A DNA stretch of 64,000 bases, taken from positions 434,001 through 498,000 of the forward strand of contig NZ_JAQNDK010000004.1 in NCBI RefSeq assembly GCF_028368935.1, written 5' to 3'. A program made the position numbers and the translations under genes. This document shows, piece after piece, positions 35,587 through 51,323 of the stretch. This DNA is from Sorangium aterium. Its GTDB lineage: Bacteria; Myxococcota_A; Polyangia; Polyangiales; Polyangiaceae. Below the pieces are notes generated by a model. That model saw only the letters and a list, made by a program, of their open reading frames with translations. It was not told where the DNA came from and ran no database searches. Numbering within the stretch: position 1 is the first letter of the stretch; each line of letters starts with the position of its first letter.

Positions 35587-35911
35587 TGAACACCCGGTCA
35601 CGGTGCCACGGCAGATACGTGCGATGGCCATCCGCCAGCCCGCGCACGCGAAGCGGCCGGTCGAGCCCCAGCGTCGTGCACGCTTCGGCGTCGAGCGCGT
35701 GGCTCACGACGATCGCCCCGTCGTCCGCCACGGTGAGGTGATGAAGCCGCGGTCGAACGCGGCATCAAGGTGCGGCGCGAGCAGGATTCCGTTGTAGACA
35801 TCGAGCCGCTCGGCATCCGTCTCGCAGTCAGCCCACGGCTTGATGTGGCTCGCGCGCAGGAGCGCGGGCACGGCAAGCCCCGTCACGGCGCAGCGCCCCT
35901 CCCACAGGTCG
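35587..35911 (-). pseudogene. HNH endonuclease, 3' remnant with frameshift
   Basis: From 35911 the minus strand reads DLWEGRCAVTGLAVPALLRASHIKPWADC, then YNGILLAPHLDAAFDRGFIT, the core of an HNH_2-type endonuclease with its His and Asn residues. At 35732-35741 a five-base tandem duplication (GGTGAGGTGA on the plus strand) shifts the frame. The match then continues in the next frame with [16 protein letters not shown] and [10 protein letters not shown]. The 5' half of the gene is missing and replaced by the YhcG-like gene, whose last codons overlap this segment. It is not functional as it stands. Confidence 0.75.
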
Positions 35912-36749
35912 GCTGGCGCTCGTGGCGGTCGAGCCAGCGCAGGTACAGCTCCATCTGGCCGGAGTCGGCTGGCTTGAAGTCGCCGATCTTCAGCTCGAAG
36001 GCGACGAGCCGCTGCATGCGCCGGTGGAAGAACAGGAGGTCGAGGTAGTAGTCGTCGCCGTCGAGCGTGATGCGCTTCTGCCGCTCGACGAAGGCGAAGC
36101 CCGCCCCCAGCTCGAGGAGGAAGCGCTCGATCTCGCGGAGGATCGCCGATTCGAGGTCCTTCTCGCTGTACGTGTCCGCAAGCTCGAGGAAGTCGAGCAT
36201 GTACGGGGCGCGGAACACGAGCGCAGGTGAGAGCTCGCCTCTCTCGTGTAGCGCGGCCAGTTCCTTGCGGATCAGCGCCTCCGGCTTCTTGGAGAGCGCT
36301 GTACGCTCGAAGAGCATGCCGTCGATACGCTCGGCGAGGACGCGCGTCGACCACCCTTCCACCCGGCACATCTCGGCGTAGAAGGTGCGCTTCAGATCGT
36401 CCTCCATGTAGATGAGCTGCTTGAAGTGGCTCCACGACAACTGTGTCCGCAGTGCGGAGACAATCTCTGCGCTGGGGAACGCGCGCGCGAACCGAATCAT
36501 GTGCCGCAGGCTCTTCTCGCCGAAGCCGCACCCGTAGCGCGCCTCCAATTGTCTCCCCGCTGCGGAGACAATCTCGGGGGGCTCGCGCCGCAAGAGCGCA
36601 GCGAGCTCGCCGGTGCGACCGGAAGTTTTACACGCCGCCGCATCGCCCAGGATCCGCAGCTTGTACTCGGCCGTGAAGCGGCGACGGTGTGTCTTGGCCG
36701 ATACCTCCGTCGGCGCGGTGAACTGGCGTTCATTGCTACCGTCTTTCAT
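35883..36749 (-). CDS. Chimeric ORF: IS3 OrfA N-terminus joined to a YhcG (DUF1016) nuclease
   Basis: 288 residues. Residues about 20-56 (RRRFTAEYKLRILGDAAAC, ELAALLRRE) match the helix-turn-helix start of IS3-family OrfA transposase proteins. From about residue 58 the sequence is a DUF1016/YhcG nuclease: LSWSHFKQLIYMEDDLKRTF, FERTALSKKPE, LRFLELADTYSEKDLE-like segments and DYYLDLLFFHRRM, with the PD-(D/E)XK residues in YLDLLFF and FELKIGDF. The protein stops after RWLDRHERQ, short of the normal family end. It therefore looks like an in-frame fusion made by insertion and deletion; whether it is expressed or active is unknown. Confidence 0.75.
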   Translation of the reverse strand: MKDGSNERQFTAPTEVSAKTHRRRFTAEYKLRILGDAAACKTSGRTGELAALLRREPPEIVSAAGRQLEARYGCGFGEKSLRHMIRFARAFPSAEIVSALRTQLSWSHFKQLIYMEDDLKRTFYAEMCRVEGWSTRVLAERIDGMLFERTALSKKPEALIRKELAALHERGELSPALVFRAPYMLDFLELADTYSEKDLESAILREIERFLLELGAGFAFVERQKRITLDGDDYYLDLLFFHRRMQRLVAFELKIGDFKPADSGQMELYLRWLDRHERQPTCGRGAAP

Positions 36750-36961: not shown

Positions 36962-37411
36962 TCACCTGCTTGCTCGCGTCTCGCGAGTGCGCTGCCGCAC
37001 TACTTGCGCGCGCACAGCCCGCTCGATCCAGTCAACGCAGGCGTCTGCGTCGGCTTCGACCTCGTGCTCCCAAATGCGGAGAACCGTCCAGCCGTTTGCT
37101 TCAAGCGTGGCGTCGTGTTCCCTGTCCCGTGCCCGGTTGCGACGGATCTTCTCCTTCCAGTAGGGAGAAGTCAGCTTCGCCTCCCACTCATCGAAGCGCC
37201 ATCCATGCCAGAAGTCTCCATCCACGAATACGACGACCCGTGCTTTGGCGAAGACGAGATCGGGCTTGCCAGGTAGGTGTCGAACGTACTTCCTATATCG
37301 AAGGCCGCGCGCGAATGAGAGGCGTCGAATGATCAGCTCGGGCTTCGTGTCCGTCTTGCGAATGCGAGACATCGTTCGTCTGCGCTGTTCGGGGGTCATA
37401 TTGTCGGCCAT
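36962..37411 (-). CDS. vsr: Very-short-patch-repair endonuclease Vsr
   Basis: 149 residues from ATG 37411, which has GGGAG nine bases upstream; ATG 37420 is too close to that site. Motifs MTPEQRRRTMSRIRKTDTKPE, LPGKPDLVF, VFVDGDFWHGW and NRARDREHDATLEANGWTVLRIWE define the Vsr family. Vsr nicks DNA beside T:G mismatches left when 5-methylcytosine deaminates, starting their repair. The His/Cys zinc ligands known from E. coli Vsr appear replaced by Asp and His. It is the last gene of the operon headed by a C5-cytosine methyltransferase, its natural companion. Confidence 0.9.
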   Translation of the reverse strand: MADNMTPEQRRRTMSRIRKTDTKPELIIRRLSFARGLRYRKYVRHLPGKPDLVFAKARVVVFVDGDFWHGWRFDEWEAKLTSPYWKEKIRRNRARDREHDATLEANGWTVLRIWEHEVEADADACVDWIERAVRAQVVRQRTRETRASR

Positions 37412-37426
37412 GATCGACATCTCCCA

Positions 37427-38572
37427 CTACGGCGCTTGAGAGCGAACGGTCCACACGGCCGTCGTGACTCGGTCAGCTCGAAACACGGCCGGTGCAGTCG
37501 ACTCCTCAACGTACGCCGCGTCGGTTACCCGCACCGTTTGCTGCGGCTGCGGGATCGCGCCGGAGAACGTGAGCCATTCGCGGCTCAGCCTGGTGACCAC
37601 CGCAGGACCATTTGCACCCGTCCCCCGTGTAGCGTTCAGGTTGATGGATACGAGCTCGCCACCCTCTACCGATTCGACGACGCCCTCGACATGGGTTCCA
37701 CACTGGCCGATCCATTGAGGCTCAGCTGTCCTCCAGAAGGCCTCGCAGAATGGGATGCAGGGGCAGAAGCGGCAGGCATCCGGAGACGGCGACGCTCCGC
37801 TCTCGAACGGCTTCCCGGCGTGCTGGTTGTACCCATCGAGCACGACCAGCGCACGTCGCCCCTCCTCAGCGGCATCTTGAGCCGAGATCGGAACCTCGGC
37901 CCGACTGCGATCCGCTCTTTCGATCACGCCGCGTGCGATCGCGATGCCGTTCTGGTTTGCTAGGTAGGCATACAGGCGAAGCTGCCGAAGCTCGCTCTCC
38001 GTGACCGGATCGGAATCGCCAGCAGCCCCGGTCTTGTAGTCGATCACGGTTGCGTTCGCGGAGTCTAGGACGTCGGCGCGCCCTGCTACTCGCCCGTCCT
38101 TGCTGACAAGGGCCGCCTCGACCGCCAGGCCGCCGCCTGAACTTCGCGCTATGGCATGTCCTGCTCGCCCGCTCAATGACGCGGCAGCGTCTGCTGCCAT
38201 CTGCGCGGCTCGCGCTCTAAACAGGTTGTAGAACGGCAGGCGGTCTGGTCCGTCGAACTTCGCATGCAGAAGCGGGTGTGTGGCAGCGAAGAGCTGTCGC
38301 ATCTTCTCGTCGAAGAAGCGCTCGGCGCCGGATCGCCATTCATCTTCTGTCGTCCCGGCAACCCCGCCCGCTCGCGCTCGCTCGAGGACCGCATGGACGC
38401 CTGTCCCAAGAAGCGCGCGGGGGTGAGGCGGCACGAGCTTGCCATCGCCGCCGGCAAGCCAGGCCGCCCGTGATGTGCATTTCATCGCTGCCTCGTAGAG
38501 CGTCGGCGAGATGCGCTCGATCCTTTTGATGGTCGGAGGGGTCGGTACCAACATCGATGCCTCGCTACTCAT
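37427..38572 (-). CDS. PD-(D/E)XK nuclease with probable Fe-S cluster (RecB/Cas4-like)
   Basis: 381 residues. The nuclease core has H60, Asp168 in AGRADVLD and D178-Y-K180 in VIDYKTG, followed by QLRLYAYL (the motif IV Tyr region of RecB-type nucleases). Cys32 (SPTLYEAAMKC) together with Cys267, Cys270 and Cys276 in the segment DACRFCPCIPFCEAF match the four-cysteine iron-sulfur site of AddB/Cas4-type nucleases. About 95 further residues form a beta-rich tail that may bind nucleic acid. Its start overlaps the helicase stop (ATGAGTAG), so nuclease and helicase are made together and probably act as a helicase-nuclease pair on invading DNA. Confidence 0.85.
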   Translation of the reverse strand: MSSEASMLVPTPPTIKRIERISPTLYEAAMKCTSRAAWLAGGDGKLVPPHPRALLGTGVHAVLERARAGGVAGTTEDEWRSGAERFFDEKMRQLFAATHPLLHAKFDGPDRLPFYNLFRARAAQMAADAAASLSGRAGHAIARSSGGGLAVEAALVSKDGRVAGRADVLDSANATVIDYKTGAAGDSDPVTESELRQLRLYAYLANQNGIAIARGVIERADRSRAEVPISAQDAAEEGRRALVVLDGYNQHAGKPFESGASPSPDACRFCPCIPFCEAFWRTAEPQWIGQCGTHVEGVVESVEGGELVSINLNATRGTGANGPAVVTRLSREWLTFSGAIPQPQQTVRVTDAAYVEESTAPAVFRADRVTTAVWTVRSQAP

Positions 38573-41500
38573 ACGGGAACCTTACGGCGCGGAACACCGT
38601 GCGGAGCTTCCACGTCCAGCCGCGCGCCTCTGCCTGGGCGACCGCGCTCGAAACCTCCGCACAGAAGTTCGATGGATCTTGATCCCACAGCGGGTGGATC
38701 AGGATGAGCACTTCTCCCCTGCCTGGGTCATGGCCCGCGGGCAAGCCCGCGAGCGTGACCTGCGTGTAGGCCAGGCCCTGGAAGTACAGCGCCGCGGTGC
38801 GCTGGACCAGCGTGGCCCAATAAGGCTGCGCCAAATCGATCGGCGCCGCTGGATCCAGCGCGAGCCGCACCATGTCGAGCGCAAGCCGCCAATCGAGCAG
38901 AGGATGGTACGGCATGTTCCCGTACTCGCGGAGGCATCGATGGCACGAGTTTGAGCACTCGTCCTCGTGCGGGGAGCTGACGATTGGGTCATAGAAGGTG
39001 CGAGATTGAGGGCCGCCGTTTCCGAGCATGAAATGCAGCAGCTTCTCGAACTCTGCGGGCGTTCCAAGATGCGTACTGTATCCAGCGCCGTTCTCAAGGC
39101 TGTCGGAGACGAAGATTCGCGCCGAAGGCGGTGCGAACGGCGTTCGCATGTCCATCAGAGGCTGGATGCCGACGTCGAGCTCCGACTCGGCCACGTCGAG
39201 GACCACCGCGGCAGCCCGCCGGGCAAGGAATCCGAACGAGTACCACGCGGCTCGCGCTTCAGGATTGGCGGGATTGAGCGTCACACCGACGGGAGCCCTC
39301 TTGATTCCGGCGACGAGAACGTCTGTATTCGCGATTGAGGCAAGCGCTCGCGTAAGTGGCGCGGCCGTGGTGTCATACTGCGGGCCTCGGACTGCACGCT
39401 GCCGATCTGTCGGAAGGTCCTGCAGCGCGCGCTGAAACGCTTGGTCGACGACCCAGATGTCGCCCACGACGACCTTCTGGAAAACGAAGTCGTCCCCGCC
39501 GTTGTCGTTGACCCGATGGATCCTCGCGGGACCGCGGTCCACCTCGAAGTTTAGACGGTGGGTGGGGCTGCCCGGGGCGCGCCCCATACGCGCGCGCAAT
39601 GCACGCGGAGTAAACTCGAACGCTCCATTGTATTCGGCTTCCGCGGCCCACCAGGTCATGAAGCCCGGAGGTTCAGAGAGATCGACGGTCCGGTAGTCGT
39701 TCCTTGTGCGCGGCGCAGCGCAGAACGGGCAGCCGCCGATCGGAGCCGGTGTCTCCACGAGAGCCTGGCACCTCCGGCAAATGCCGACCTGTACCGGGTT
39801 TCCGAGCGGATCAGGCGACGTTTGAACGCTCCCGCCCGCCGGGAAGTAGTCAACGACCCCCACCGACGTAAGAAGCTCATCGTCTTTCACGGTTTGGGCG
39901 CCGGGGGCGAACTGGCTGATTGCGATGTCGAGCTGCCGGTCGACTATTCCGCGTTCAGGAGGCCAGCCGCCGTCTGCAGACGGAGGACCTCCGTGGAAGA
40001 GGTAGCGAACGCGCGTTGGGAAGCCGAACATCGGGAGTACGCCATGGGAGGCAAGGCGCTCGCTGAGCGCATGGTGGCCCATGCTGTTCTGCGCCACGGC
40101 GTCGATCGCGCGCAGCAGATCGTTGGTCACATGCTGAACCATTGCTGCGATATCCGTAGCCGTATCGAGCGCGGTCCGCCGCACGACAGCGCGACAGACA
40201 TCTTGAATAATCTGGGCGTTGACGCTTACCCACGCAGCGACCGCACCTCGGTAGCCAGACCAGTCGGAGACGGAGCCGAACTCCCCGTGCACATTGTCGC
40301 CGCTGTACGGGAGCTGCAGCGGCTCAAACGCTCTTCGCAGCACCTCCTTGTTTACAACGCGCTTCGCAATCTCCGGCCGTGTGACGTCCACGTAAGGTGG
40401 CGGTGGCGGCTCGGCTGTGATGAGCCACGGGCGCTCGAAGTAATAGTCGTCGTGACTGCGGCCGCGGCATAGAGTGAGTGCGGCGGACATTCCAAGGCCT
40501 CGGCGTCCCGCCCGCCCAACTCGCTGCTGGTAGTTGAACCGCACCGGCGGCATGTTTGCGAGCGCGATCGCTTGGAGAGCGCCGATATCCACGCCCGCTT
40601 CCATAGTGGTCGTTACGCTTAGGAGGTCGACGCCGGTCGCGATCTCAACTTCATCGGCCATGAACACTTCCTGGAATCGCCGCTGCCTGAGGCGGCGATC
40701 GATTCGGTTCGTCTGGCCCGTCAGCTCCTCGCAGTTCAATCGGAACGGGGCATCCGCGCAGCGCGCGAGGTACTCGTAATAGTCGCTCGGCAGGCCCCTC
40801 GTTGAATGCGACGCCGGGTTGGGCGGCAGCTGCCCGCGGCACGCCGTGCAGTAACCGGCAGATGCGTGGAGATGCGAGCACCCGCAGCGTGTGCACACGT
40901 ACACATCAATATTCCCGGACGCGTCGGGCCGCGGGCTCACGACGGTGAAGGAATCAGGATCGACGAGCCACTGCCCGAGGCATGCACCAAGGACGCGCAC
41001 GACGTCCCTTTGGAGATCGTTAGCGGTCATCCCCAGCGGCGGCGCAACCTGTTCCAAGAACGTACTGACGTATTCTGGCGGCTGCCCGCGGCCTTGTGCA
41101 TCGCCTCCCGTCCAGCGCCACTTCTGCGCGAGCATGCGCACTACGCTCGCAGCGGCTTGTTCGGTGGGCGTTGCCGGCGGTGCGTTGCCCGTCCACAAGT
41201 AGCCAAGCCCCAGCGATTCGAAGTCTCTTGCAGCGGAGGCGAAAAAGACGCTCGAAATCACGCTGGCGCGAAACGAATTCTCGATCCTCGCCTGAAGGTT
41301 CTGTTCGAGCGGCTGCAGCCCGGCCTTGTACGCAGGCGGCGAAGCGGACCAGTCGATCAGCTCCGTCCACACGACCTTCGGTCCCTGTCGCTGCGGCTGG
41401 TAGCGCGATACGGATGGCAGCGGGCCGCCGGGATTCATGCCCAGCGCGAGGAGCCGCTGCCTCACCAGGTCGAGGACCTGCCTGAACGTCATGAACATTA

Positions 41501-44099
41501 ACGGGCCTGGCGGAACGGGGGCTCGCAGCATGCCCGGCTGGGGGCCGCCCGTTGCAGCGTGCCTCGAGAGGTCGCCGACGACGTCGCCTGGGAGCGCGGT
41601 CATGAGTTCCTTGCGGCGCTGGTTCTCTGGTTCGGATAGGCCTTCGTCCTCCCTCTTCCTCAGGAGATTGTGGAGCTCGACGGCTTGGGCGTGAACAGTG
41701 AGTTGCTGCTGATGCTGCCGAAGCGAAGCGGCCCCTGCCTCTCCTAGTAACGTAAACGCAATCTGTCGGAGTGTATCTCGGTAGTGCGCCAGCTTGATGC
41801 CGGTCGAGAGTTTGGCGGCATCAAGGCGCGAGTCGGAGAACAGCACGAGCTTTCGCGCTGGCCCCGGCGGCATTTCTCGAACGACGGCGTCCCCAAGGAT
41901 CTGCATGATGCGCTGAAAGCCGGAGCCGAGATCACGGATTGGAGATTTCACGCCGAGGCGACGGCCCCAATCGGCGGCGCAGTGGGGACATTTCGCGGGG
42001 AACGCTTCCGCGTCATCCACAGGGGCCGTAAATGCATAGCCGGCCACGTCGTTCGAACCAGCGCTGCGCCGGCCTGGATTGATCGAGAGGCGGCCCTCGA
42101 TGATGTCGAGCGATGCAGGGCACCACTGGTAGCCGGCTTGACCATCCTGCTGCCATCGCCACGACGGACCTGCGTGGGTGCTCCGCACGAGCGGCGTGGT
42201 GCCCGCAGGCCAAAAGACAAGGTACTCTCCATGAGTTCGATCAAGCGAAGCCGAACGGTCCGGTACATGATTCAAGTCTGGGAAGTCGGGCGACAGAAAC
42301 CACGCGTTGTTGGTGTTGTCGTCCTCGTCCCGGTATCCGCCGATGAACACCTCGCCGCACGGCTGGCAGTAGAGGAGCTCCAGAACTCGGGCGTTGCAAC
42401 TGTCACAGCGAGGGCGGGGCTCTACGTAGAAGCGTCCTACGGGTGGCGTTGGAGCACCGCGAAGGGTCGTGCGCTTCCGCCCTGTGCACGCTGGGTTGAC
42501 GCAAACCCAAAGCCGTCCGGCATTGTGGAAGAAGTAGTGCACACGAAGCGGCAGCGGAGCCACATTCGCTCCACCGCGCGGCTGCCGTGCTGCCACCAGA
42601 GCGCGAACAACCGCACGCGCGGCTTCGGGCGCATCGGGAACCGCGCCGAAGAGCGCAGCTGCGAGCCGGCTCAAGGTGAACGGCGCGCTCGCACCCTCCT
42701 GCCGCACGCGCTCGAGGATGCCCGTTTGAGCGAGGACATCGCCCAGCTTCTGTTCGGCGGTCGTGCCGGCCGAATTCACGCCGGCATCCAACGCCAGGCC
42801 TGCGACGGCCTGATTGAGGTCGCCCGCTTCCAGACGGCGCGCGAACAAACAAAAGGAGCTTGGACCCGGAGCGGTCCCGCCGATGGGGAACGTCGCTCTG
42901 TTCCCATCGATGATTCGGAACGACTTCCGATCGCGGCCGAAGAATTGCTCCAGGTACTCGAGGCTGTCCGGATCATTCGCCTCCATCGACGCACTTGTCG
43001 CGATGATGCGTAGCTGCGGAGAGTCCGGCGTCAACCCCAGCCGGTGCAGCAACGCGCGGAGGAGGTAGCCAACCTCCGTTCCCGGCGTTCCTCGGTATGT
43101 GTGAAGCTCGTCGACGATCAGATGGAAGTGGTTCCGGGTGCGATCGCTCGCCAGCCACGTGCGCGTCTGGTCGAAGATCGTGCCTTCGATGCTGCGCATC
43201 AGCATGATGTTCAGCATGCTGTAGTTCGTGATGAGGATGTCCGGCGGATCTTCCTGCATATCCCACCGGGACCACATTTCCGAACCTTGGGGATCCTGAA
43301 AATAAGAGAGGACGTCATCGTTGGCCGATCGGGCCGCCGATAGCTGCGCGCGGCCCCACTCGCTCTCCATCTCCTTCAGGCGGCGCTTAAGCTCCTGTCG
43401 CTTGGAAGGATTCGTCTGCGGCCCCGAAACCGGCGTCGAACCGGTGTACCGGCCGAACCAGTAGCGATTGCCGCTACGCTTCATCGACAGCCACGTGCGC
43501 CCATCGGGGCTGTCGCAAGCCCGGCGGATTCTGCCGAGCTGGTCTTCGATGAGCGCGTTGAGCGGATACAAGAAGAGGGCGCGGAGTGCTTTTGCGCGGC
43601 CAGTGTCGTGGGCGCGTTGCGGGATACGCTGCTGTTTGCGGAAGTTCCACCAGAGCGCTCGCGCAGAGGGAGCCGCGGGCGCACCCCAGGTGGCCGACTC
43701 TTCGACAAGCGCCGCGAAGACCGGAAGCAGGTAGCACTCGGTCTTGCCGGAGCCGGTGCCCGTTGTGACCACGACGGCTTCGCCAGCTCTCGACGCCTTC
43801 CAGGCATCGAGCTGGTGCTGAAAGAGTTCGCGCCCCGCAGGGAACAGGCCGCCGCTCTCGACGTACTCCGCGACCTCCTGCGGCGCGCCGAGGTGCCTGC
43901 AAGCCGCCCGAACCGTCATGCCCGAGGACTCGTAGGGGACAATGGGCTCAAAGAGCGGGTTCCTGTAGAGCTGGCGGTCCTGATCCAGAAGGTCCCGCCG
44001 TTCCTCCATCAGAGCGGGGTACCGAAGCCGGAAAGGACTGTCTAAGTAGCGCAGATACGCGCTGCGCAACTCGTTGAAGGTGAGGAACGGATCGTTCAT
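38565..44099 (-). CDS. Large DEAD/DEAH helicase with DUF1998-type C-terminus (DruE-like)
   Basis: 1844 residues. Helicase motifs: Walker A GTGSGKT (114-120), DELH box (330-333), TSAS (368-371), FSDSRLDAAK (754-763), VTTTMEAGVDIG and QQRVGRAGRRG (1191-1201). Long insertions carry cysteine clusters at 533-581, 704-707 and 1069-1087, probable zinc ribbons. The C-terminal part has CRRCQAL...CPFCAAPR and ECSNSCHRCLREYGNMPYHPLLDW, as in DUF1998 domains. A single chain with both helicase and DUF1998 parts is the layout of DruE of Druantia systems, rather than the split DrmA/DrmB of DISARM. It is ATGA-coupled to the gene before and overlaps the nuclease gene behind. Confidence 0.8.
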   Translation of the reverse strand: MNDPFLTFNELRSAYLRYLDSPFRLRYPALMEERRDLLDQDRQLYRNPLFEPIVPYESSGMTVRAACRHLGAPQEVAEYVESGGLFPAGRELFQHQLDAWKASRAGEAVVVTTGTGSGKTECYLLPVFAALVEESATWGAPAAPSARALWWNFRKQQRIPQRAHDTGRAKALRALFLYPLNALIEDQLGRIRRACDSPDGRTWLSMKRSGNRYWFGRYTGSTPVSGPQTNPSKRQELKRRLKEMESEWGRAQLSAARSANDDVLSYFQDPQGSEMWSRWDMQEDPPDILITNYSMLNIMLMRSIEGTIFDQTRTWLASDRTRNHFHLIVDELHTYRGTPGTEVGYLLRALLHRLGLTPDSPQLRIIATSASMEANDPDSLEYLEQFFGRDRKSFRIIDGNRATFPIGGTAPGPSSFCLFARRLEAGDLNQAVAGLALDAGVNSAGTTAEQKLGDVLAQTGILERVRQEGASAPFTLSRLAAALFGAVPDAPEAARAVVRALVAARQPRGGANVAPLPLRVHYFFHNAGRLWVCVNPACTGRKRTTLRGAPTPPVGRFYVEPRPRCDSCNARVLELLYCQPCGEVFIGGYRDEDDNTNNAWFLSPDFPDLNHVPDRSASLDRTHGEYLVFWPAGTTPLVRSTHAGPSWRWQQDGQAGYQWCPASLDIIEGRLSINPGRRSAGSNDVAGYAFTAPVDDAEAFPAKCPHCAADWGRRLGVKSPIRDLGSGFQRIMQILGDAVVREMPPGPARKLVLFSDSRLDAAKLSTGIKLAHYRDTLRQIAFTLLGEAGAASLRQHQQQLTVHAQAVELHNLLRKREDEGLSEPENQRRKELMTALPGDVVGDLSRHAATGGPQPGMLRAPVPPGPLMFMTFRQVLDLVRQRLLALGMNPGGPLPSVSRYQPQRQGPKVVWTELIDWSASPPAYKAGLQPLEQNLQARIENSFRASVISSVFFASAARDFESLGLGYLWTGNAPPATPTEQAAASVVRMLAQKWRWTGGDAQGRGQPPEYVSTFLEQVAPPLGMTANDLQRDVVRVLGACLGQWLVDPDSFTVVSPRPDASGNIDVYVCTRCGCSHLHASAGYCTACRGQLPPNPASHSTRGLPSDYYEYLARCADAPFRLNCEELTGQTNRIDRRLRQRRFQEVFMADEVEIATGVDLLSVTTTMEAGVDIGALQAIALANMPPVRFNYQQRVGRAGRRGLGMSAALTLCRGRSHDDYYFERPWLITAEPPPPPYVDVTRPEIAKRVVNKEVLRRAFEPLQLPYSGDNVHGEFGSVSDWSGYRGAVAAWVSVNAQIIQDVCRAVVRRTALDTATDIAAMVQHVTNDLLRAIDAVAQNSMGHHALSERLASHGVLPMFGFPTRVRYLFHGGPPSADGGWPPERGIVDRQLDIAISQFAPGAQTVKDDELLTSVGVVDYFPAGGSVQTSPDPLGNPVQVGICRRCQALVETPAPIGGCPFCAAPRTRNDYRTVDLSEPPGFMTWWAAEAEYNGAFEFTPRALRARMGRAPGSPTHRLNFEVDRGPARIHRVNDNGGDDFVFQKVVVGDIWVVDQAFQRALQDLPTDRQRAVRGPQYDTTAAPLTRALASIANTDVLVAGIKRAPVGVTLNPANPEARAAWYSFGFLARRAAAVVLDVAESELDVGIQPLMDMRTPFAPPSARIFVSDSLENGAGYSTHLGTPAEFEKLLHFMLGNGGPQSRTFYDPIVSSPHEDECSNSCHRCLREYGNMPYHPLLDWRLALDMVRLALDPAAPIDLAQPYWATLVQRTAALYFQGLAYTQVTLAGLPAGHDPGRGEVLILIHPLWDQDPSNFCAEVSSAVAQAEARGWTWKLRTVFRAVRFPYE

Positions 44100-44995
44100 C
44101 GCTTTGCCTCTGGCATCGGAACACCCTGCCCCAAGCCGACGAGCAGCATTGAGGCAATACGAGGATCAACGCTCTCGAAGAGAATCTCGCCTTCGCTGGC
44201 AGCGCTCGGGCGGCCGCCCGCGAGACACGCGGCGCGCGCATAGATCGCGGGCAGCGGAGCCCATGTTGGGACACGCAGGCGCCCCTCGTCGTGCGAATAA
44301 TTCACGATTCGTGCACCCCTCACGTATGCCGCGCAATATATCGACGCACGCTTCTCGATCTCTCTCATGCCGGTCTTCCCAGCGTGTACCAGGTAGCGCC
44401 TGACGCCCTGTCGATTGCTGTACTCACGAACCGTGCGATCGAGCCGCTCGTTCACCCACTTTTCGTCCTGGAACGACCACGAGCGCACGGACCAGTTGAT
44501 TGGCTCCTGCGCGGGCTGGCCAGCGTCAACCATAGCCCTGATCGGCGGCAGCCGTGTCGAGAGGATCGCTGCCGCATTGGCGACATATTCGATTCCGAGG
44601 CTCTCGGCGAGTCCGGCAACCGCTTCCCGCGCACCCGTCACGTGCACGCGTGTGAGCCCTGCAATAGGCTCGGCTGTCGTGACCATGACATTGGATGAAC
44701 CGGCTCCACAGAGCCGATCCATGATCGACCGCGTCCGCCCGCCCACAAACAGGTGCTCTCGGTTTTGTGAGAGGCCGACCAGAGCCGGACGCAGCATCCG
44801 CCAGCGTCGGGACCCCTCGACGAAGAAGTCGACGTGACTCAGGTCGGAGAAGGCAATGCGCAGGGTGCGGACACGGGACTGCGCGTCGAGGGGGTCTTGG
44901 TCGCCCGTGAGCTCCTCAACAGCCTCGCGGAATGCTCCCCATGCGCCGGAGCCGAGGTGGGTCATCCATTCGAGGAGGAGATCCCACGTCTTCAT
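44096..44995 (-). CDS. Unknown defence-operon protein (DruG-like by position)
   Basis: 299 residues from ATG 44995, overlapping the previous stop (ATGA) and ending in an ATGA with the helicase gene. I recognise no family by sequence. It starts MKTWDLLLEWMTHLGSGAWGAFREAVEEL and contains VGGRTRSIMDRL and VRRYLVHAGKTGMREIEKRAS; there is no membrane segment or obvious catalytic motif. The position between the 655-residue protein and the helicase corresponds to DruG in Druantia type II. The name rests on synteny only. Confidence 0.7.
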   Translation of the reverse strand: MKTWDLLLEWMTHLGSGAWGAFREAVEELTGDQDPLDAQSRVRTLRIAFSDLSHVDFFVEGSRRWRMLRPALVGLSQNREHLFVGGRTRSIMDRLCGAGSSNVMVTTAEPIAGLTRVHVTGAREAVAGLAESLGIEYVANAAAILSTRLPPIRAMVDAGQPAQEPINWSVRSWSFQDEKWVNERLDRTVREYSNRQGVRRYLVHAGKTGMREIEKRASIYCAAYVRGARIVNYSHDEGRLRVPTWAPLPAIYARAACLAGGRPSAASEGEILFESVDPRIASMLLVGLGQGVPMPEAKR

Positions 44996-46959
44996 CTCCG
45001 CCTCCGTCCGGCCCGCTTGCTTGATCTCGCTGCTTCCATCAGCTGGCGCCATTCGGCGCTGAGGCGCTCGTCTCTGCACCCATGTTGGCAGAGGAAATCC
45101 GGCCGCCGTATGCCCGCCTGGTACACGGTGTCGGCCCAGCTTGCGCCACTCTTCTTGCCGCGTGCAGGGGCGCCCGGTCGCGGAGCAGGCCGGCTGAGTA
45201 TGTGATCGTGGATGTGAAGAGCTTTCGCCCCTGGGCCTGATGCAACGCGGACCGCCCAACGCACCTGGAAGCTTGGCCGAACCAGAGCACCCTCGGAGGG
45301 CGCGAAGATGCTCTCGCTTTCGCCTGGCCCAGCTCCGAGAAGAACCCAGTGGCCCGCTGGAACAGCCACGGGAATCGGCTGATCGATGTCCGGCCCTAAC
45401 CACGATCGGCAATCAGTGTGAACGGCACCTTTCAGGACCGTTACCCGCTGCCGCAGCCGATTTCCAATCTCGATGACGTGCTGGCCCGCAGCTCCGAGCA
45501 GGTCCGTGTGAACCCGTCCTCCGTCGTCGAGGCGCACCTCCTGTCCGTCGACCTTTGCGACGAGGCCACGATGCGAGCCGAGCACGGTCAGCCGTGCAGG
45601 AGCGGACTCCAGCCAGCTCCATCGTCGCCCCAGCCGCAGCCCGCCCTCCGGGATCAGTGCAAGGCTCGTTTCAACTCCGAGGCGCTCCAGGCCCGGAGGC
45701 GGGGAACATTCGTTCGTCGCGCGAACGTCGGTGAACAGGCACCAGCCGGTTGGGATGGTGTCGTCTCGGCGAGGACGAACCCGTTCGTGGCTCAATGCCT
45801 GCAGATAGCGAGCAACGTCGTCAACGAGAGGCTCAGCGCAGAGGACCGCGCAGTCTGTGTCGGCCCGAAGGACTCGATCCGAGACAAAACCGGTGTACTC
45901 CTCGGATGGCGTGAGCGGCAGAACGCGTGCGCGGCGTAGCTGGAGGTAGTAGCGCCCCCCGTTGTTGCTGCGGGTTCCGATGCGGACGCCGTTCTCGAGG
46001 AGCTGCCCATCATCACGCCCGAGTTGAACAGGCTCGTACCAGCCGTCTTGGCTGGAGGCAAACACGAGTTCTCTGTCTTCGATCAGCTCTGGAAACCCGG
46101 AGGGCCTTCGGGCGAGGAGATGAAGCTGCGCGCGGCGCCGGCGAATGTCCATCCAGAGTTCGATCGTTGCCGTTCGTGCGCCGGATGAATCCACCCGGCA
46201 TCCGTCCCAACGCTCAAGCTCGTGAGCTACCTGGCGGACGACGAACGGCCGGCGGTGACGATCCTTCAATGCGTTCTGGCCCGATTCCGTGAGGTGACGC
46301 CACGGCCCGGACGCTTCGTAGAGGTCGTACGTGAGGCGATCGAGCGGCGCGCGCGCGCCGGGCTCGTAACCGTAGGCATCGAAGAACTGCGGCAGCCGCT
46401 CGATGTCAACTTGCCGAAGTGGTACGTGCGCAAACGGGTATGCGACGTAGCGTCGCACGCCAACGGCGTCCGGAGCGGCAAGTTCGCGCCCGTAGTGCAC
46501 TTTCAGCCAGGCAGCCAGCTCGTCCCAAAGATCGATGAACGCGTCTCCCTCGAAGCCGACCGGATACGACCTAGCCAGATCGCATCCGAGCATCTCGGCG
46601 AGCCGCGGGTAGAAGGCGCGGCCTGTGTGCTCGTCGTCCGTGCGCATGTGGAACGCGGCGAGCACGGAGAGCGCGAGAAAGCCGATCCCGAACGGCACGT
46701 CGTTGGGTGACGTCGACTTCAGGGCGCGGAGCTTCTTCGCGCTGCTCAGGACGCGGTGCCGATACATGCCAGCGACCGCTGCTGTGAAGTCGGCTTCTGC
46801 TTCCTCGGGGGAGCGTCCTCCCTCGCCTGCTTCCTCGAGTGCTGCTGCGAGCGTTCGTGGAGCGACCGTGAGCAGAACAATGCCCTCGCAGGAGTGCGCA
46901 AGGAGGCAGTGCTCCGCGAGCATGTAGTTCCAGAGGATGTACCGGCCCTCGGAGCTCAT
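44992..46959 (-). CDS. Unknown defence-operon protein (DruF-like by position)
   Basis: 655 residues. It begins MSSEGRYILWNYMLAEHCLL. Residues 1-190 are helical; the middle and end are beta-rich (LRLGRRWSWLESAPARLTVLGSHRGLVAKVDGQE, HWVLLGAGPGESESIFAP), resembling repeated immunoglobulin-like or jelly-roll folds. The last 60 residues are basic with CQHGC, perhaps a DNA contact. No catalytic motif is recognised. It starts nine bases after the methyltransferase stop and overlaps the next gene, the place of DruF in Druantia type II. It may serve target recognition or complex assembly, but this is a guess. Confidence 0.7.
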   Translation of the reverse strand: MSSEGRYILWNYMLAEHCLLAHSCEGIVLLTVAPRTLAAALEEAGEGGRSPEEAEADFTAAVAGMYRHRVLSSAKKLRALKSTSPNDVPFGIGFLALSVLAAFHMRTDDEHTGRAFYPRLAEMLGCDLARSYPVGFEGDAFIDLWDELAAWLKVHYGRELAAPDAVGVRRYVAYPFAHVPLRQVDIERLPQFFDAYGYEPGARAPLDRLTYDLYEASGPWRHLTESGQNALKDRHRRPFVVRQVAHELERWDGCRVDSSGARTATIELWMDIRRRRAQLHLLARRPSGFPELIEDRELVFASSQDGWYEPVQLGRDDGQLLENGVRIGTRSNNGGRYYLQLRRARVLPLTPSEEYTGFVSDRVLRADTDCAVLCAEPLVDDVARYLQALSHERVRPRRDDTIPTGWCLFTDVRATNECSPPPGLERLGVETSLALIPEGGLRLGRRWSWLESAPARLTVLGSHRGLVAKVDGQEVRLDDGGRVHTDLLGAAGQHVIEIGNRLRQRVTVLKGAVHTDCRSWLGPDIDQPIPVAVPAGHWVLLGAGPGESESIFAPSEGALVRPSFQVRWAVRVASGPGAKALHIHDHILSRPAPRPGAPARGKKSGASWADTVYQAGIRRPDFLCQHGCRDERLSAEWRQLMEAARSSKRAGRRRR

Positions 46960-46968
46960 TTTTGTCGC

Positions 46969-49008
46969 TCACAGATTCAGCATAAATTCAGCGATGGCTT
47001 TTGTGACGAGCGGGCACACTGCATTCGCCAGTTGCTGCTGCTTGTGAACCAGCCCTCCTGGTTTGCCGCTTGCGGTTCCGGCGAACCGGAACCAGTCAGG
47101 GAATGACTGCAGACGTGAGGCCTCTCTCAGCGAGAGGCCTCGATGTTGGCTCGGATGAACCAGCATACTCTTTCGGTAGTGGCCGATCGTGATCGATGGC
47201 TCGTCCCACCGGAGCCTGCGGTAGATGTTGCTGTGCGTCCGCGAGACGTCGGCGTAGTTCGTCATCTGGTCGCGGATGCTTTCCCAGTTCCCGCCCGCAG
47301 GGATGCTGCGATAGCGCTCGATGACATAGTCAGCGTGCCTCGAGGTGACGTGATCGAAGGCGACGCCGTGCTCCGCGCCTGCCCGTGCGTACCGAAGGAA
47401 TTCGTTCTCTTGAAGAACTTCATCCGAAGGCTCGTCGTACGACGCGCGCTCCTCCGACTCTCCGTTCCCGATCCGCGGAAGGTCGGCGATCGCGTTTCGG
47501 ACAGTGACAAAAGGGCGCGACGGGTTCCCGTGAGAAGGCTTCGGGAAAGGGCCCCACGGCCCGAAGTCGTCTGCCGAGTAGCCGAGATCGCGATGCAGCC
47601 CCATAAGGAAAAAGCGTGTGCGGTTCTGGGGCACGCCGTACCAGACGGCGTCGAGCAGCTTCGGGAAGAGCACGTAGCCGGCCGCCTTCAATCGCCGCTC
47701 GATCACATCGACGACGGAGACCGACGTGCCGGCGTTCGGCGTCCAAAGAATTCCTTGAACATTCTCCATCAGGAAGCCGAGAGGCCGGAGCCGCAGGATG
47801 TACTTGATGAAGACGTCGACTAACTCGTTGTGTGGATTGCTCGCGGACCAGGAGTTTCGATTGGCCATCGAGAAGCCCTGGCACGGCGGACCGCCGATCA
47901 GGAAAGTAGCGCCTCCCGCTTCGCGAGCCACGGCCTCGGCGCGCTCAAGAACCGCCTTCTCGCGAAGGTCTGCCGCTTCGCTCGATTCGGGCGTTCTCGA
48001 AGCGGGCCGGAGGCGCGCCGCGCGCTCGAATGACTTGTGGTTGGCGCGGAGCGTCTGGACGAAGATCGGGTTTGCTTCGCCGGAGTAGATGATCCGATAG
48101 CGTCCTTGTGGGCCGCCGCCGAGCAAGAATCCAAGCCCCATCCCTCCGGCCCCCGAGAAGAGCTCAATGACATTGAGGATGGATGCAGCCTGTCGCAGCA
48201 GTCCTTTCGTGGACGTTTGGATCTGAGGCAGCTCAGCCTGCGCGCGAGCGTCCTGCTGCCGCGCAAGTGCGATATTTGCGCGCGCCGTGATTGCAGATGC
48301 GGCCCCCGACGGCTCTGCCCCAGTTCTTGCAGCCTCTCTACGCTTCTCGTTCCTAGAGGCGCGACGTATCCACCGAGCGTGCGCGACAAGCTGGACGAGA
48401 TCAGCGAGGCCTGCATCAAACGATGCAAGACCAATAATGGTGCCTCGGTGGACGCCTTGGATGCCGCCGACCTGTGCTGCGAAGAGCCACCCCGTGCCGG
48501 CCGGAAGGGCCACAGTCGCGAGCTTTGCAGCGCTGCACTCGAGCTCAGCACCATCAGGCATCACTGTCGAGATGTCCCTCCACCTTCCGCGTTCGAGCAC
48601 ATCCGCGGCTGCAACGGTGGGACGCCCGCGCTCGTTCAGCTGCACGACGGTGCTCGGGCGGATTTGAACGACGAACGGGAGATCCCGCTCGCCGAGCATC
48701 TCCAAGAACGCGGAGGCCGAGCCGTAGGACGTCCCAGCGACCACCACCGGCTGGCCTCCGTCCGCAGCGCGATCGACGAGCTTCGAGGCGAGCTCAATTT
48801 TTGCGCTTCGCTTCGAGCGCATGCTTCCCGCCTCGTAAGTCCTGCGGGCGACTACAAGCTTGCTCGCGCCGTTCAGGCGGTGGACTCGCACAGTGATTGT
48901 TTGGCCGGTATCCTCGCTGCCTACGCCGGCGAGACGGCGCCGCTCGGCGGCCGTCGAGTTGTCCTCGACGAGCAGGATCTCATCGAAGCGCCCAATGTAA
49001 TGGGTCAC
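46969..49008 (-). CDS. C5-cytosine DNA methyltransferase with transposase-like N-terminal domain (DruM-like)
   Basis: 679 residues from GTG 49008, chosen because AAGGAGGG precedes it by seven bases; a start at 49074 has no such site. Methyltransferase motifs: I NVIELFSGAGGMGLGF (279-294), IV GGPPCQGFS with Cys376, VI ENVQGI (415-420), VIII QNRTRFF (461-467), IX LREASRLQSFPDWFRF, X QQLANAV. It would transfer a methyl group to carbon 5 of cytosine and protect host DNA. Residues about 69-224 resemble the DDE domain of IS701-type transposases (KIELASKLVDRAADGGQPVV, SYGSASAFLEMLGERDLPFV, LADLVQLVAHARW), but the first Asp position reads AGTSYG, so this part is probably not a working transposase. 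Confidence 0.85.
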   Translation of the reverse strand: MTHYIGRFDEILLVEDNSTAAERRRLAGVGSEDTGQTITVRVHRLNGASKLVVARRTYEAGSMRSKRSAKIELASKLVDRAADGGQPVVVAGTSYGSASAFLEMLGERDLPFVVQIRPSTVVQLNERGRPTVAAADVLERGRWRDISTVMPDGAELECSAAKLATVALPAGTGWLFAAQVGGIQGVHRGTIIGLASFDAGLADLVQLVAHARWIRRASRNEKRREAARTGAEPSGAASAITARANIALARQQDARAQAELPQIQTSTKGLLRQAASILNVIELFSGAGGMGLGFLLGGGPQGRYRIIYSGEANPIFVQTLRANHKSFERAARLRPASRTPESSEAADLREKAVLERAEAVAREAGGATFLIGGPPCQGFSMANRNSWSASNPHNELVDVFIKYILRLRPLGFLMENVQGILWTPNAGTSVSVVDVIERRLKAAGYVLFPKLLDAVWYGVPQNRTRFFLMGLHRDLGYSADDFGPWGPFPKPSHGNPSRPFVTVRNAIADLPRIGNGESEERASYDEPSDEVLQENEFLRYARAGAEHGVAFDHVTSRHADYVIERYRSIPAGGNWESIRDQMTNYADVSRTHSNIYRRLRWDEPSITIGHYRKSMLVHPSQHRGLSLREASRLQSFPDWFRFAGTASGKPGGLVHKQQQLANAVCPLVTKAIAEFMLNL

Positions 49009-49095
49009 TGTCGCACCCTCCTTCGCTGGTCGGTAGAACCGCGCAGACCCGCCTTGGATGAGACCGAAAGGCACGAGGGGAGGTACGGGCAGCGG

Positions 49096-49308
49096 TCAAC
49101 GGGCGTCATCGTCCGCCCTCTTCGATGGGTTGCGGTCACCGGCGCCGCCTCGACGAACCCACTCGTCGCTCTCGTCGGTCTTGAACTTCGAGAGCCTGCC
49201 GACGCGATGGGCTGGAACAGCGCGCGGTTCGATCCATCGGTAGATTCTGTCCTTCCCCGCACCGAGATGGCGGGACAACTCTTCGACCGAAACCCACGGC
49301 TCAGACAT
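49096..49308 (-). CDS. Excisionase/AlpA-type helix-turn-helix protein
   Basis: 70 residues from ATG 49308. VSVEELSRHLGAGKDRIYRWIEPRAVPAHRVGR is a winged helix-turn-helix of the MerR/excisionase (HTH_17) type, with the usual R-V-G-R wing. It is the first gene of the defence operon, 87 bases before the methyltransferase start, so it may regulate the operon, or be left from the mobile element that brought it. Longer open codons upstream belong to the recombinase-associated remnant. Confidence 0.75.
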   Translation of the reverse strand: MSEPWVSVEELSRHLGAGKDRIYRWIEPRAVPAHRVGRLSKFKTDESDEWVRRGGAGDRNPSKRADDDAR

Positions 49309-49429: not shown

Positions 49430-49788
49430 GTGGGCCGCGGCCCGCAGCGTTCGCTCGGCCATCCCGCTCGGTGCCGTCGACCGCCTCGAGCCCGAGCACG
49501 CGTGCCTGCGGGTCGGGGGCGAGGAGGAGAAGGCTGGACCACTCGGGCACGCGTAAGCCCCAGCTTGCGCGCGATGGCCGTGCGGTCGGTGACGAAGCCC
49601 GGATCGAGCGCGCCCTGTAGGTGGTGCGCGAGGGCCTGCATCCGGGCGACCTTCGCGAGGTGCCGGATGGGCTCGGGCTTCGGGGGCCACGGCTGCCCGG
49701 TGAGGAGCACGCGCGAGCTACGGCGGCGTAACAGCGTCTCCGTGAGTACGTGGCAGTGCTTCGGCGTCCGTGAATCGGTCGTCGTCAT
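49430..49788 (-). pseudogene. Serine-recombinase-associated small protein, frameshifted
   Basis: From ATG 49788 the frame reads ARMQALAHHLQGALDPGFVT and DRTAIARKLGLTRARV, a KorB-like helix-turn-helix found in short genes that sit behind large serine recombinases. The expected continuation (LLLLAPDPQARVLGLEAVDG) is in another frame after about 49527, and a later piece (AERTLRAAAHAGT) is in a third frame. Two frameshifts therefore break it. Its start overlaps the recombinase remnant stop as ATGA. Confidence 0.65.
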
Positions 49789-50051
49789 GCAGCGTCCTGC
49801 GAGCGCACGTCGGCGCCGAAGTTCACGAATTCGACCTCGACGACGCCGATGGCCTCCTCCACGCGCACCGCCGCGACGAGCGCGCGTAGCAGACGCCCTC
49901 GGTTCTCGGGCGTCATCAGGCGCCAGACGTTCGCGAAGTCGCGCAGCGCGCCGAGCATCCCCTTCACCTCTGCGTCTGCGGCCTCGAGGTTGGCTAGGTC
50001 GCGCTCGGTCTCGGCGATGTGGCGTTCGGCGGCGACGCCTCGATCCGCCTC
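49785..50051 (-). pseudogene. Serine site-specific recombinase, C-terminal remnant
   Basis: The minus strand reads AERHIAETERDLANLEAADA, then a segment with MKGMLGALRDFANVWRLMTPENRGRLLRALV and VRVEEAIGVVEVEFVNFG. This coiled-coil plus tail is typical of the end of large serine recombinases/resolvases. An in-frame stop at 50052-50054 and the absence of catalytic and recombinase domains upstream show that only the 3' end remains. Confidence 0.7.
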
Positions 50052-50462: not shown

Positions 50463-51323
50463 ATGGCAAAGCAAGGACAGGACTTCGAACGCTGGGTCAA
50501 GGTCGCCGCCGGGTCGGAGCGGACCGACAACCCGCTGAACATTCCGTACGACATCGCCGTGCGCGAGGCGGTCGCCGCCGCGGCGTTCGTGAAGAAGTAC
50601 TGGGAGCCCGACGGCGATCGCCCGGGCCTCAAGCGGGTCAAGAGCCGCCTGCCCGCATCGAGCGGCGAGGAGCTGCTCTCCATCGTGCACGCGGTGCAGG
50701 AGGCGCAGACGCGGCTGCTCCTCATCGTCGATCCGGCCGTGGCCGATCTCGGCGAGCGCGCCCGGTTCGTCGTCGATGAGCTCGAGTCGGCGCTCGAGTT
50801 CCTGCTCGACGACGACGTCGACGAGCCCGCCGACGCGCAGCTCGCGCGCATCAAGGAGTTCCACGCGCAGGACGGCCAGCGCTCGAGCGCCCTCTCCCAG
50901 GCGCTCCGCGATTACGCGGGGCTCGCGGAGCCGCTCAAGGACCGCCTGGTCGAGGCGGACGAGGCGTTCGACGTGCGCCTCATCGCCGAGGCCAGGAAGC
51001 TCGCGGAGGATCTGCAACAGCGGGCGCTGGAGGCGGCCCCCGAAGCGGGCGCCTCGCCCGCCGCGACCACGATCCGCAACCAGCTGCTGCACCTCATGGT
51101 CCAGCGCGTCGGCTCCATCCGGAAGACCGCGGCCCACGTCTTCCGGCGCCACCCCGAGATCGCCCGCGAGGTGACGAGCGCTTACGAGCGGCGCCGGCGC
51201 GCGGCGGCGCGGCGCGAGAAGGCCCGTAAGGCCACCGAGTCCGGACAGGCCAACGGCAAGCCGGCGGCGGCGCCGGTGCCCGTGACCCCCGCGCCCGCGA
51301 CCCCCGCGCCCGCGACCTCCTAG
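50463..51323 (+). CDS. Unknown soluble helical protein, 286 residues
   Basis: From ATG 50463 the protein begins MAKQGQDFERWVKVAAGSER. It is mostly helical, with two Ala-rich amphipathic segments and acidic stretches (FLLDDDVDEPADAQLARIKEF), then a basic region (SAYERRRRAAARREKARKA) and a Pro/Ala tail of PAPAT repeats. No membrane segment, signal peptide or catalytic motif is visible. I do not recognise the family. The basic region and flexible tail could contact nucleic acid. Confidence 0.65.
   Translation: MAKQGQDFERWVKVAAGSERTDNPLNIPYDIAVREAVAAAAFVKKYWEPDGDRPGLKRVKSRLPASSGEELLSIVHAVQEAQTRLLLIVDPAVADLGERARFVVDELESALEFLLDDDVDEPADAQLARIKEFHAQDGQRSSALSQALRDYAGLAEPLKDRLVEADEAFDVRLIAEARKLAEDLQQRALEAAPEAGASPAATTIRNQLLHLMVQRVGSIRKTAAHVFRRHPEIAREVTSAYERRRRAAARREKARKATESGQANGKPAAAPVPVTPAPATPAPATS

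What the first reader, a model, noticed from the sequence alone, without database searches (positions are those of the whole stretch)
36962..49308. Seven-gene defence operon resembling an extended Druantia type II system
Seven minus-strand genes with overlaps or tiny gaps: HTH, C5-methyltransferase, 655-residue protein, 299-residue protein, 1844-residue helicase with DUF1998-like end, PD-(D/E)XK nuclease, Vsr. The middle four match the order DruM-DruF-DruG-DruE as I remember Druantia type II. The added nuclease overlaps the helicase gene by eight bases, so it looks like a working part of the system. A Druantia-like system with a built-in nuclease and Vsr would explain how DNA is destroyed, which is not obvious for Druantia itself. 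The base composition of the operon is visibly less GC-rich than its surroundings, and recombinase debris flanks it.
Basis: partly seen in the sequence, partly recalled or inferred. Interest (0 to 1): 0.85.

Follow-up and report, generated by a model that had tools for sequence, protein, structure and literature searches.

The report
Druantia variant with transposase-derived methyltransferase
This is an intact set of bacterial anti-phage genes of the already known Druantia kind, and its DNA-methylating protein carries a fused, apparently dead transposase core that has been kept in several distantly related bacteria.

Summary
The operon is real and intact, but it is not Druantia type II. PADLOC profiles give DruE4 (1830 bits; DruE2 1591), DruF, DruL4 and DruK, and no DruG: a type IV-like core. 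The "built-in nuclease" already has a PADLOC family, DruK. Among 44 related loci with enough flank, Vsr occurs in 13 of 24 with a C5-methyltransferase and 0 of 20 without, so repair of deaminated 5mC explains it better than destruction of phage DNA.

The methyltransferase is a fusion: residues ~29-252 are a transposase core (Pfam DDE_5; modelled fold matches the Tn5 inhibitor, Z 15.3) joined to an intact C5-MTase. The same fusion is one open frame in six other genomes of three other phyla and on a Nostoc plasmid, always beside DruE. It is under purifying selection (dN/dS 0.24-0.28); the second catalytic Asp is gone in all seven aligned.

Best reading: restriction-modification-like defence. The MTase, placed by a pseudo-transposase module, marks self DNA; DruE, DruF and DruL attack unmarked DNA; DruK cuts. 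Composition is shown, mechanism inferred. New variant of a known kind.

The parts
49096..49308 (-). 70-residue helix-turn-helix protein of the excisionase/MAD1 kind; peripheral
   Evidence: TIGR01764 39.5 bits (cut-off 28.8), MAD1 model 43.5 (cut-off 80, not passed). In the seven core-clade loci scanned, the only clear counterpart is a broken one in L033 (E 2.2e-5)
46969..49074 (-). druM-like gene: transposase-derived domain fused to a C5-cytosine methyltransferase, 701 aa from GTG 49074, or 679 aa from the likelier GTG 49008
48319..48990 (-). pseudo-transposase domain, residues 29-252
   Evidence: DDE_5 29.0 bits (cut-off 27); Tn5 inhibitor fold Z 15.3; second catalytic Asp replaced by Gly/Ser; dN/dS 0.24-0.28
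46969..48186 (-). C5-MTase domain, residues 297-701, with PCQGFS and ENV motifs conserved
   Evidence: DNA_methylase 149 bits; dcm 126 bits (cut-off 100.65); invariant columns
44992..46959 (-). druF, 655 aa, function unknown
   Evidence: DruF2 E 2.9e-31, DruF4 E 4.2e-24
44096..44995 (-). druL, 299 aa; residues 1-70 look like a winged helix
   Evidence: DruL4 E 1.5e-22; AF2 mean pLDDT 92.9; winged-helix matches only at Z <= 5.5
38565..44099 (-). druE, 1844-aa YprA-family helicase: Walker A 113, DELH 330, GRAGR 1195, Cys cluster near 1719; no nuclease motif seen at the C-terminus
   Evidence: DruE4 1829.6 bits; motifs
37427..38572 (-). druK, 381-aa PD-(D/E)XK nuclease with four conserved cysteines (Cas4/AddB-like pattern)
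   Evidence: DruK E 1.7e-23; PDDEXK_1 56.9 bits (cut-off 22); conserved columns
36962..37420 (-). vsr-like gene, 152 aa, zinc-ligand positions changed
   Evidence: TIGR00632 130.9 bits (cut-off 97.85); alignment
49788..50051 (-). probable serine-integrase tail upstream of the operon
   Evidence: phrog_95 E 6.6e-4; weak

Best explanation
A horizontally acquired Druantia system with a type IV-like core (DruE-DruF-DruL), working like a restriction-modification system. Shown: the gene set, its repeated order in other phyla, a C5-MTase with its catalytic motifs, a helicase with its motifs, a PD-(D/E)XK nuclease, and a transposase-derived domain fused to the MTase that is conserved, under purifying selection and lacks the second catalytic Asp. 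Inferred: (1) the MTase marks host DNA; (2) the dead transposase core is a binding module, for DNA or for partner proteins, that places the MTase; (3) DruE with DruF and DruL loads on unmarked or replicating phage DNA and unwinds it; (4) DruK cuts the exposed strand in trans, because this DruE shows no active nuclease; (5) Vsr repairs T:G mismatches left by deaminated 5mC and is a maintenance gene, not an effector.
For: Core identity. Order MTase-DruF-DruL-DruE-DruK-Vsr repeated in L033, L034, L035 (own clade) and, with an unfused MTase, in L049 and L111 (Alphaproteobacteria). Fusion conserved as one frame in 7 of 10 clade members, window included. Selection. Fold. Dead catalytic site. Vsr only with an MTase, 13 of 24 against 0 of 20. 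DruE without nuclease motif. Type III DruE prefers 3' ssDNA and needs its own nuclease pocket (PMC13192584, passages).
Against: 20 of 44 evaluable relatives have no MTase and 31 of 44 no DruK downstream, so neither is needed for Druantia of this kind in general. In the own clade 3 of 9 relatives (L036, L039, L087) have no DruK, yet keep the rest. L032 has Ile in place of a nearly invariant active-site Lys of DruK. L033 does without the transposase domain. The co-occurrence tests ignore shared ancestry. The MTase hits general type II MTase models better than DruM models. No defence or methylation was measured.
Confidence: 0.55

Rival explanations
1. One reading: an extended Druantia type II in which DruK and Vsr are two effector nucleases that destroy phage DNA.
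For: 8-base DruE/DruK overlap and 6-base DruK/Vsr gap; Vsr keeps the catalytic Asp and His; ARMADA helicases carry predicted active Vsr nucleases (PMC12458937, section 8); the clade's Vsr has lost the zinc-ligand residues, so its job may have changed.
Against: No DruG. Vsr goes with the MTase, 0 of 20 loci without one have it, and in L098 and L074 it sits beside a divergent MTase gene away from DruE/DruK. DruK is already a known Druantia-associated family.
Confidence: 0.15
2. The MTase, DruK and Vsr are accessory genes: defence needs DruE-DruF-DruL alone, the MTase being an independent self-mark or anti-restriction gene carried along.
For: 20 of 44 evaluable relatives have no MTase at all; type III Druantia works with DruH and DruE only (PMC13192584, PMC13316683; passages).
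Against: All 10 members of the window's DruE clade have an MTase, L032 as a fragment cut by the contig end, in nine of them as the gene before DruF.
Confidence: 0.23
3. The transposase-like N-terminal part is an insertion-sequence remnant read through by chance, without function.
For: It evolves faster than the MTase (29-59% against 57-80% identity in all but the closest pair); it is absent in L033; the weak matches elsewhere are insertion-sequence transposases, in up to 9 copies per genome.
Against: One open frame with the MTase in seven genomes of four phyla and a plasmid; dN/dS 0.24-0.28, against 0.36-0.84 in the linker; invariant motifs such as RPST.
Confidence: 0.04

Closest known systems
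Druantia type IV (PADLOC 2021, PMC8565338)
   Same: DruE4, DruF4/DruF2 and DruL4 matches in the order DruF-DruL-DruE; no DruG
   Different: A DruM-like MTase is present, fused to a transposase-derived domain; DruK and Vsr follow. The paper describes type IV as lacking DruM and DruG
Druantia type II (DruMFGE; Doron 2018, recalled; named in PMC13316683, passages)
   Same: C5-MTase first, then DruF, last DruE; DruE2 1591 bits
   Different: No DruG; DruL instead; DruE4 scores higher; the five DruM models hit are 336-380 positions long, without room for the N-terminal domain
YprA-family defence systems: DISARM, Dpd, ARMADA (PMC12458937)
   Same: YprA-like helicase with MrfA-type zinc-binding part; MTase and nuclease genes in several of them
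   Different: No BrxHII- or PglX-like gene and no PLD nuclease among the seven proteins' Pfam/PADLOC matches
IS701/IS4-type DDE transposases, Tn5
   Same: RNase H-like core with the beta insertion: 1b7e Z 15.3, rmsd 3.4, 198 aligned; Nostoc transposase in L125, hhalign probability 94
   Different: Second catalytic Asp lost, Glu position variable, N-terminal part of the transposase missing, fused to an MTase
SETMAR (PMC8704517, search listing and abstract start only)
   Same: A methyltransferase and an inactive transposase in one protein
   Different: Unrelated enzymes and host; it methylates protein lysine, not DNA; analogy only

Membership tests
Druantia (any type) | DruE, YprA-family helicase with DUF1998/MZB part | tested here: met
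   DruE4 1829.6 bits over residues 1-1829; MZB 19.4 bits, below its cut-off of 24.2
Druantia (any type) | protects against phage | not testable with these tools
   needs plaque assays
Druantia type II | DruM, DruF and DruE present | tested here: met
   DruM 2.3e-56 (general MTase_II 1.8e-75 is better), DruF2 2.9e-31, DruE2 1590.8 bits
Druantia type II | DruG present | tested here: not met
   no DruG model among the matches of the seven proteins at E <= 0.1 (for the MTase the best 25 of 57 families were shown); that the library holds DruG models is recalled
Druantia type IV | DruE, DruF and DruL present | tested here: met
   DruE4 1829.6 bits, DruF4 4.2e-24, DruL4 1.5e-22
Druantia type IV | DruM and DruG absent | tested here: inconclusive
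   DruG not seen; an MTase that matches DruM models stands in the DruM place, but general MTase models score higher. Hence filed as a type IV-like variant, not as plain type IV
DruK nuclease / Cas4-AddB-like Fe-S nuclease | PD-(D/E)XK residues and four cysteines | tested here: met
   E152, D167, Y179, C32 invariant and K180, C267, C270, C276 in at least 90% of 19 sequences; Cas4 model TIGR00372 27.1 bits, cut-off 65, not passed, so it is not called Cas4
Vsr mismatch endonuclease | family profile and catalytic Asp/His | tested here: met
   TIGR00632 130.9 bits, cut-off 97.85; D54 and H72 invariant in 16 sequences (roles recalled)
Vsr mismatch endonuclease | structural zinc ligands (HGCFWHxHxC ... 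WECE; recalled) | tested here: not met
   VDGDFWHGW and WEHE in the window; likewise changed in L032-L035. So it is called Vsr-like
Active DDE transposase (IS701/IS4 kind) | D-D-E catalytic triad | tested here: not met
   second Asp is Gly or Ser in 7 of 7 and 6 of 6 against L125; first Asp kept in 5 of 6; Glu position D/N/D/E/E/N. The fold is met
DISARM | DrmA, DrmB, DrmC (PLD) and DrmM | tested here: not met
   DrmMII matches only through the shared MTase class; DrmA a 66-residue stretch at 7.5e-9; no PLD nuclease match
MADS | MAD1-MAD8 gene set | tested here: not met
   only the HTH resembles MAD1 and stays below the cut-off (43.5 of 80); no other MADS model among the matches shown

The most novel reading that the evidence does not exclude
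A transposase catalytic core has been domesticated as a dead, fused recognition or recruitment module of a cytosine methyltransferase inside a Druantia system: it reads a DNA structure or end and couples self-marking to the helicase complex. In architecture this would be a bacterial counterpart of SETMAR.
Probability: 0.4. Interest if true: 0.75.

Novelty: new variant of a known kind. Interest (0 to 1): 0.5.

Why it matters
How Druantia systems that carry a methyltransferase tell self from phage, and what cuts DNA when DruE has no active nuclease, are open questions. This clade makes both testable: one fused protein offers a marking enzyme plus a pseudo-transposase module, and DruK is a defined nuclease candidate that some relatives lack. 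It also shows a transposase core reused as a fixed part of an immune protein across phyla, and it suggests that Vsr in such operons serves upkeep of methylated DNA.

Tried and rejected
Druantia type II was rejected for lack of DruG. DISARM and Dpd gave only short helicase matches and a shared MTase class. ARMADA, BRIGADE and TALON were read about; their partner genes do not show among the matches. Bell et al. equate Druantia II with Type IV CoCoNuT, whose operon includes a CnuB homologue; no McrB-like GTPase shows in the seven proteins. How their naming maps onto PADLOC type IV was not resolved. MADS was considered because of the HTH; it is below the MAD1 cut-off.

My note, that all three transposase residues had changed, was wrong: one search shows the first Asp kept in 5 of 6, the Glu position variable, and only the second Asp lost throughout.

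The AF2 model of the whole fusion rests on 7 sequences: mean pLDDT 53.5, pTM 0.40; between residues 31 and 250 most 10-residue blocks lie at 60-87, three near 46-47. Foldseek's Tn5 match has a good E-value (3.6e-7) but rmsd 8.7 and TM 0.21 on the query length. DruL gave a good model (92.9), no Foldseek match below E 0.4, and winged-helix matches at Z <= 5.5 only; its profile hits the regulator 2g7u at E 0.0013. No known fold can be claimed or excluded for its other parts. PDB profile searches found nothing for DruF (E <= 1) or DruK (E <= 0.1). DruF was not modelled. Sequence relatives of DruE in the PDB: 9wae (549 bits), 9tu7 (146), 6znp (48).

In 235 genomes of the window's phylum no DruE near the window's was reported: the best other match is 36% over about 340 residues, and only the two best candidates per genome were scored. 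Viral contigs gave six MTases at 27-31% identity, matched from residue 245 or later, and none with the domain; phages gave nothing.

Paper searches. No paper describing the fusion was seen in those listings. The library lacks most subscription journals, Doron 2018 is recalled only, and supplements were not read.

Rows dropped: the window's own copy L001; 36 of 80 loci with short flanks from the evaluable set; 11 of 81 DruE rows under 1500 aa from the tree; L033 and L038 from the fused-domain alignment A6. One search kept the best 80 of 98 relatives.

Full report
WHAT IS THERE. The seven minus-strand ORFs are open and closely packed. The genome has 13.47 Mb in 7 contigs; a myxobacterium is likely (inference from size, GC and the nearest DruE, L032, labelled Myxococcota). 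Gene GC is 0.60-0.65 against 0.70-0.71 around the operon. The genome has one full-length DruE; the only other match is 70 residues at E 1.9e-4. In 235 genomes sampled from its phylum the best other match is 36% identical over about 340 residues (two candidates scored per genome). With the GC step and a probable serine-integrase tail at 49788-50051 (weak), this points to horizontal gain. DNA similarity to L032 (DruE 86% identical) runs from window 37009 to 47272, where the L032 contig begins; beyond vsr there is only a separate 66% match in the DUF1016/YhcG frame.

WHAT THE GENES ARE. PADLOC: DruE4 1830 bits, DruE2 1591; DruF2 E 2.9e-31, DruF4 4.2e-24; DruL4 1.5e-22; DruK 1.7e-23; Vsr 7.4e-16; MTase_II 1.8e-75 and DruM 2.3e-56. 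No DruG. The PADLOC paper (PMC8565338; passages; section 14) sets type IV apart by DruE and DruF with DruL instead of DruM and DruG: 168 instances, 11 phyla. So the core is type IV-like, with an MTase in the DruM place. DruL also matches the C-terminal part of the long DruF2 models (also three DruL relatives and L064's), so in some systems DruF and DruL are probably one protein.

THE OVERLOOKED PART. Residues 76-166 of the MTase protein hit DDE_5 (29.0 bits, cut-off 27) and 89-242 hit the IS701 transposase model (41.2 bits, far below its cut-off of 150). Of 7 domains scanned alone, 5 hit DDE_5. The same fusion is one open frame of 690-722 residues, stop to stop, in L034 (Rhodopirellula MAG, Planctomycetota), L035 (Gemmatimonadetes MAG), L036 (Calothrix), L037 (Chamaesiphon MAG), L039 and L087 (Nostoc), and it occurs as WP_179069910.1 on Nostoc sp. 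C052 plasmid pC052_B, two genes from a DruE (there DDE_5 is at 25.1 bits, just under the cut-off). Identity of the domain between genomes is 29-59% and of the MTase 57-80%, but for the L039/L087 pair at 97 and 95%. dN/dS of the domain is 0.24, 0.28, 0.25 and 0.27 in four pairs; of the MTase 0.15, 0.11 and 0.12 in three, the fourth being saturated; of the linker between them 0.36-0.84. The deep pairs have high dS, so their values are rough.

FOLD AND CATALYTIC SITE. The AF2 model of the fusion is modest (mean pLDDT 53.5), but most of residues 31-250 is at 60-87. That part matches Tn5 transposase: Foldseek 1mm8 E 3.6e-7 (rmsd 8.7); 1b7e Z 15.3, rmsd 3.4, 198 residues, model 29-252 on chain 89-340. 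A stand-alone Nostoc transposase (L125) matches the domain profile at E 1.2e-8 and by hhalign at probability 94, E 8.6e-8. Compared with it, the second catalytic Asp is Gly or Ser in all six fused sequences compared (and Ser in the seventh), the Glu position reads D, N, D, E, E, N, and the first Asp is kept in five of six. Which residues are catalytic in L125 was assigned by motif, from recall. About 100 N-terminal residues of the transposase have no counterpart. I therefore call it a pseudo-transposase domain.

WHERE THE FUSION OCCURS. The domain profile was run on 244 genomes of the phylum of L036 (15 with a match), 249 of the phylum of L035 (3), 246 of the phylum of L034 (1) and 222 of the window's phylum (4). 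In each, the only full-length match listed is the seed genome; the rest are partial and weak (E 5.4e-9 or worse), with up to 9 copies in one genome, as expected of insertion sequences. At most 10-11 first-look candidates were scored per genome, so a rare copy could be missed. Among 72,556 plasmids there is one match, the Druantia-bearing one. In the eight genomes of clade loci searched whole, the six fused loci match fully; the genomes of L032 (its MTase cut by the contig end) and L033 (domain absent) do not match. In the DruE tree (quick method, 70 of 81 rows) the window falls in a clade of 10, SH-aLRT 100; seven carry the fusion, window included; L033, sister of L034, lacks it but keeps the linker motif; L038 has another MTase; L032 cannot be judged. 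The simplest history is one capture early in this clade and a loss in L033 (inference).

NEIGHBOUR COUNTS. Of 80 related loci (the best 80 of 98), 44 have at least 5 kb before and 2 kb after DruE. In these, Vsr occurs in 13 of 24 loci with an MTase anywhere in the locus and in 0 of 20 without (Fisher 5e-5); DruK lies downstream in 12 of 24 and 1 of 20 (0.002). DruK downstream: 13 of 44; Vsr downstream on the same strand: 10 of 44; both: 6 of 44. In all 80 loci Vsr is in 16 of 32 with an MTase and 0 of 48 without. Shared ancestry is not corrected for. Among the nine relatives in the window's clade DruK is in six and Vsr in four; L037 ends 0.6 kb after DruK, so its Vsr is untested.

DRUK AND VSR. 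In 19 DruK sequences C32, E152, D167 and Y179 are invariant and K180, C267, C270 and C276 nearly so, a pattern like Cas4/AddB Fe-S nucleases (recalled); L032 has Ile for K180. Vsr passes its TIGR cut-off, keeps the Asp and His of the active site, and in the window and L032-L035 has lost the zinc-ligand residues (roles recalled). So it is Vsr-like, and its repair role in this clade is less sure than in classical Vsr.

HOW IT PROBABLY WORKS. Type III DruE prefers 3' ssDNA-containing substrates, and a change in its PLD nuclease pocket abolishes defence (PMC13192584, passages). Bell et al. report inactivated Vsr domains at the C-terminus of Druantia I and II helicases (PMC12458937, section 8), and by eye no PD-(D/E)XK motif is seen there in this DruE. 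So another protein should cut; DruK is the best candidate here, though relatives without DruK must use something else. The MTase most likely marks self DNA, and the Vsr-like enzyme most likely repairs deamination damage. The pseudo-transposase domain is most likely a binding module. None of these steps has been tested by experiment.

LITERATURE. Seen: PMC8565338 (passages, section 14), PMC12458937 (outline and abstract, passages, sections 5, 8, 26), PMC11090510, PMC13192584 and PMC13316683 (passages). No paper in the listings was seen to describe an MTase-transposase fusion in Druantia; this is no proof of absence.

VERDICT. The added value lies in the conserved pseudo-transposase-methyltransferase fusion.

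Noticed in passing
window 35704-36749 (-): A DUF1016/YhcG nuclease frame (126 and 90 bits) overlapped by an HNH_2 frame (46 bits) just downstream of vsr; similar DNA lies near the Druantia operon in L032 (66%) and L034 (71%), so YhcG may be a recurrent neighbour.
   Followed up: partly
L051, L056, L057, L064, L077 and similar loci: A large sister group of DruE loci (Chloroflexota, Cyanobacteriota and others; 28 tree rows) has DruF frames often of 560-600 aa and DruL frames often near 445 aa. In it one locus (L067) shows an MTase and none shows DruK or Vsr. Its effector is not evident.
   Followed up: no
L033:2850-3050: Before the MTase of L033 lies a broken counterpart of the window's HTH gene, with two in-frame stops, while the operon's large genes are open.
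   Followed up: partly
window 50470-50560 (-): ARAGORN calls a 91-base tRNA-Asp close to the upstream edge of the island; its odd length makes it doubtful. Whether it was an integration site was not tested.
   Followed up: no
L041:15460-16504: DruK is split over three frames (120, 124 and 99 aa) in a Bacillota MAG, a sign of decay or of sequencing error.
   Followed up: no
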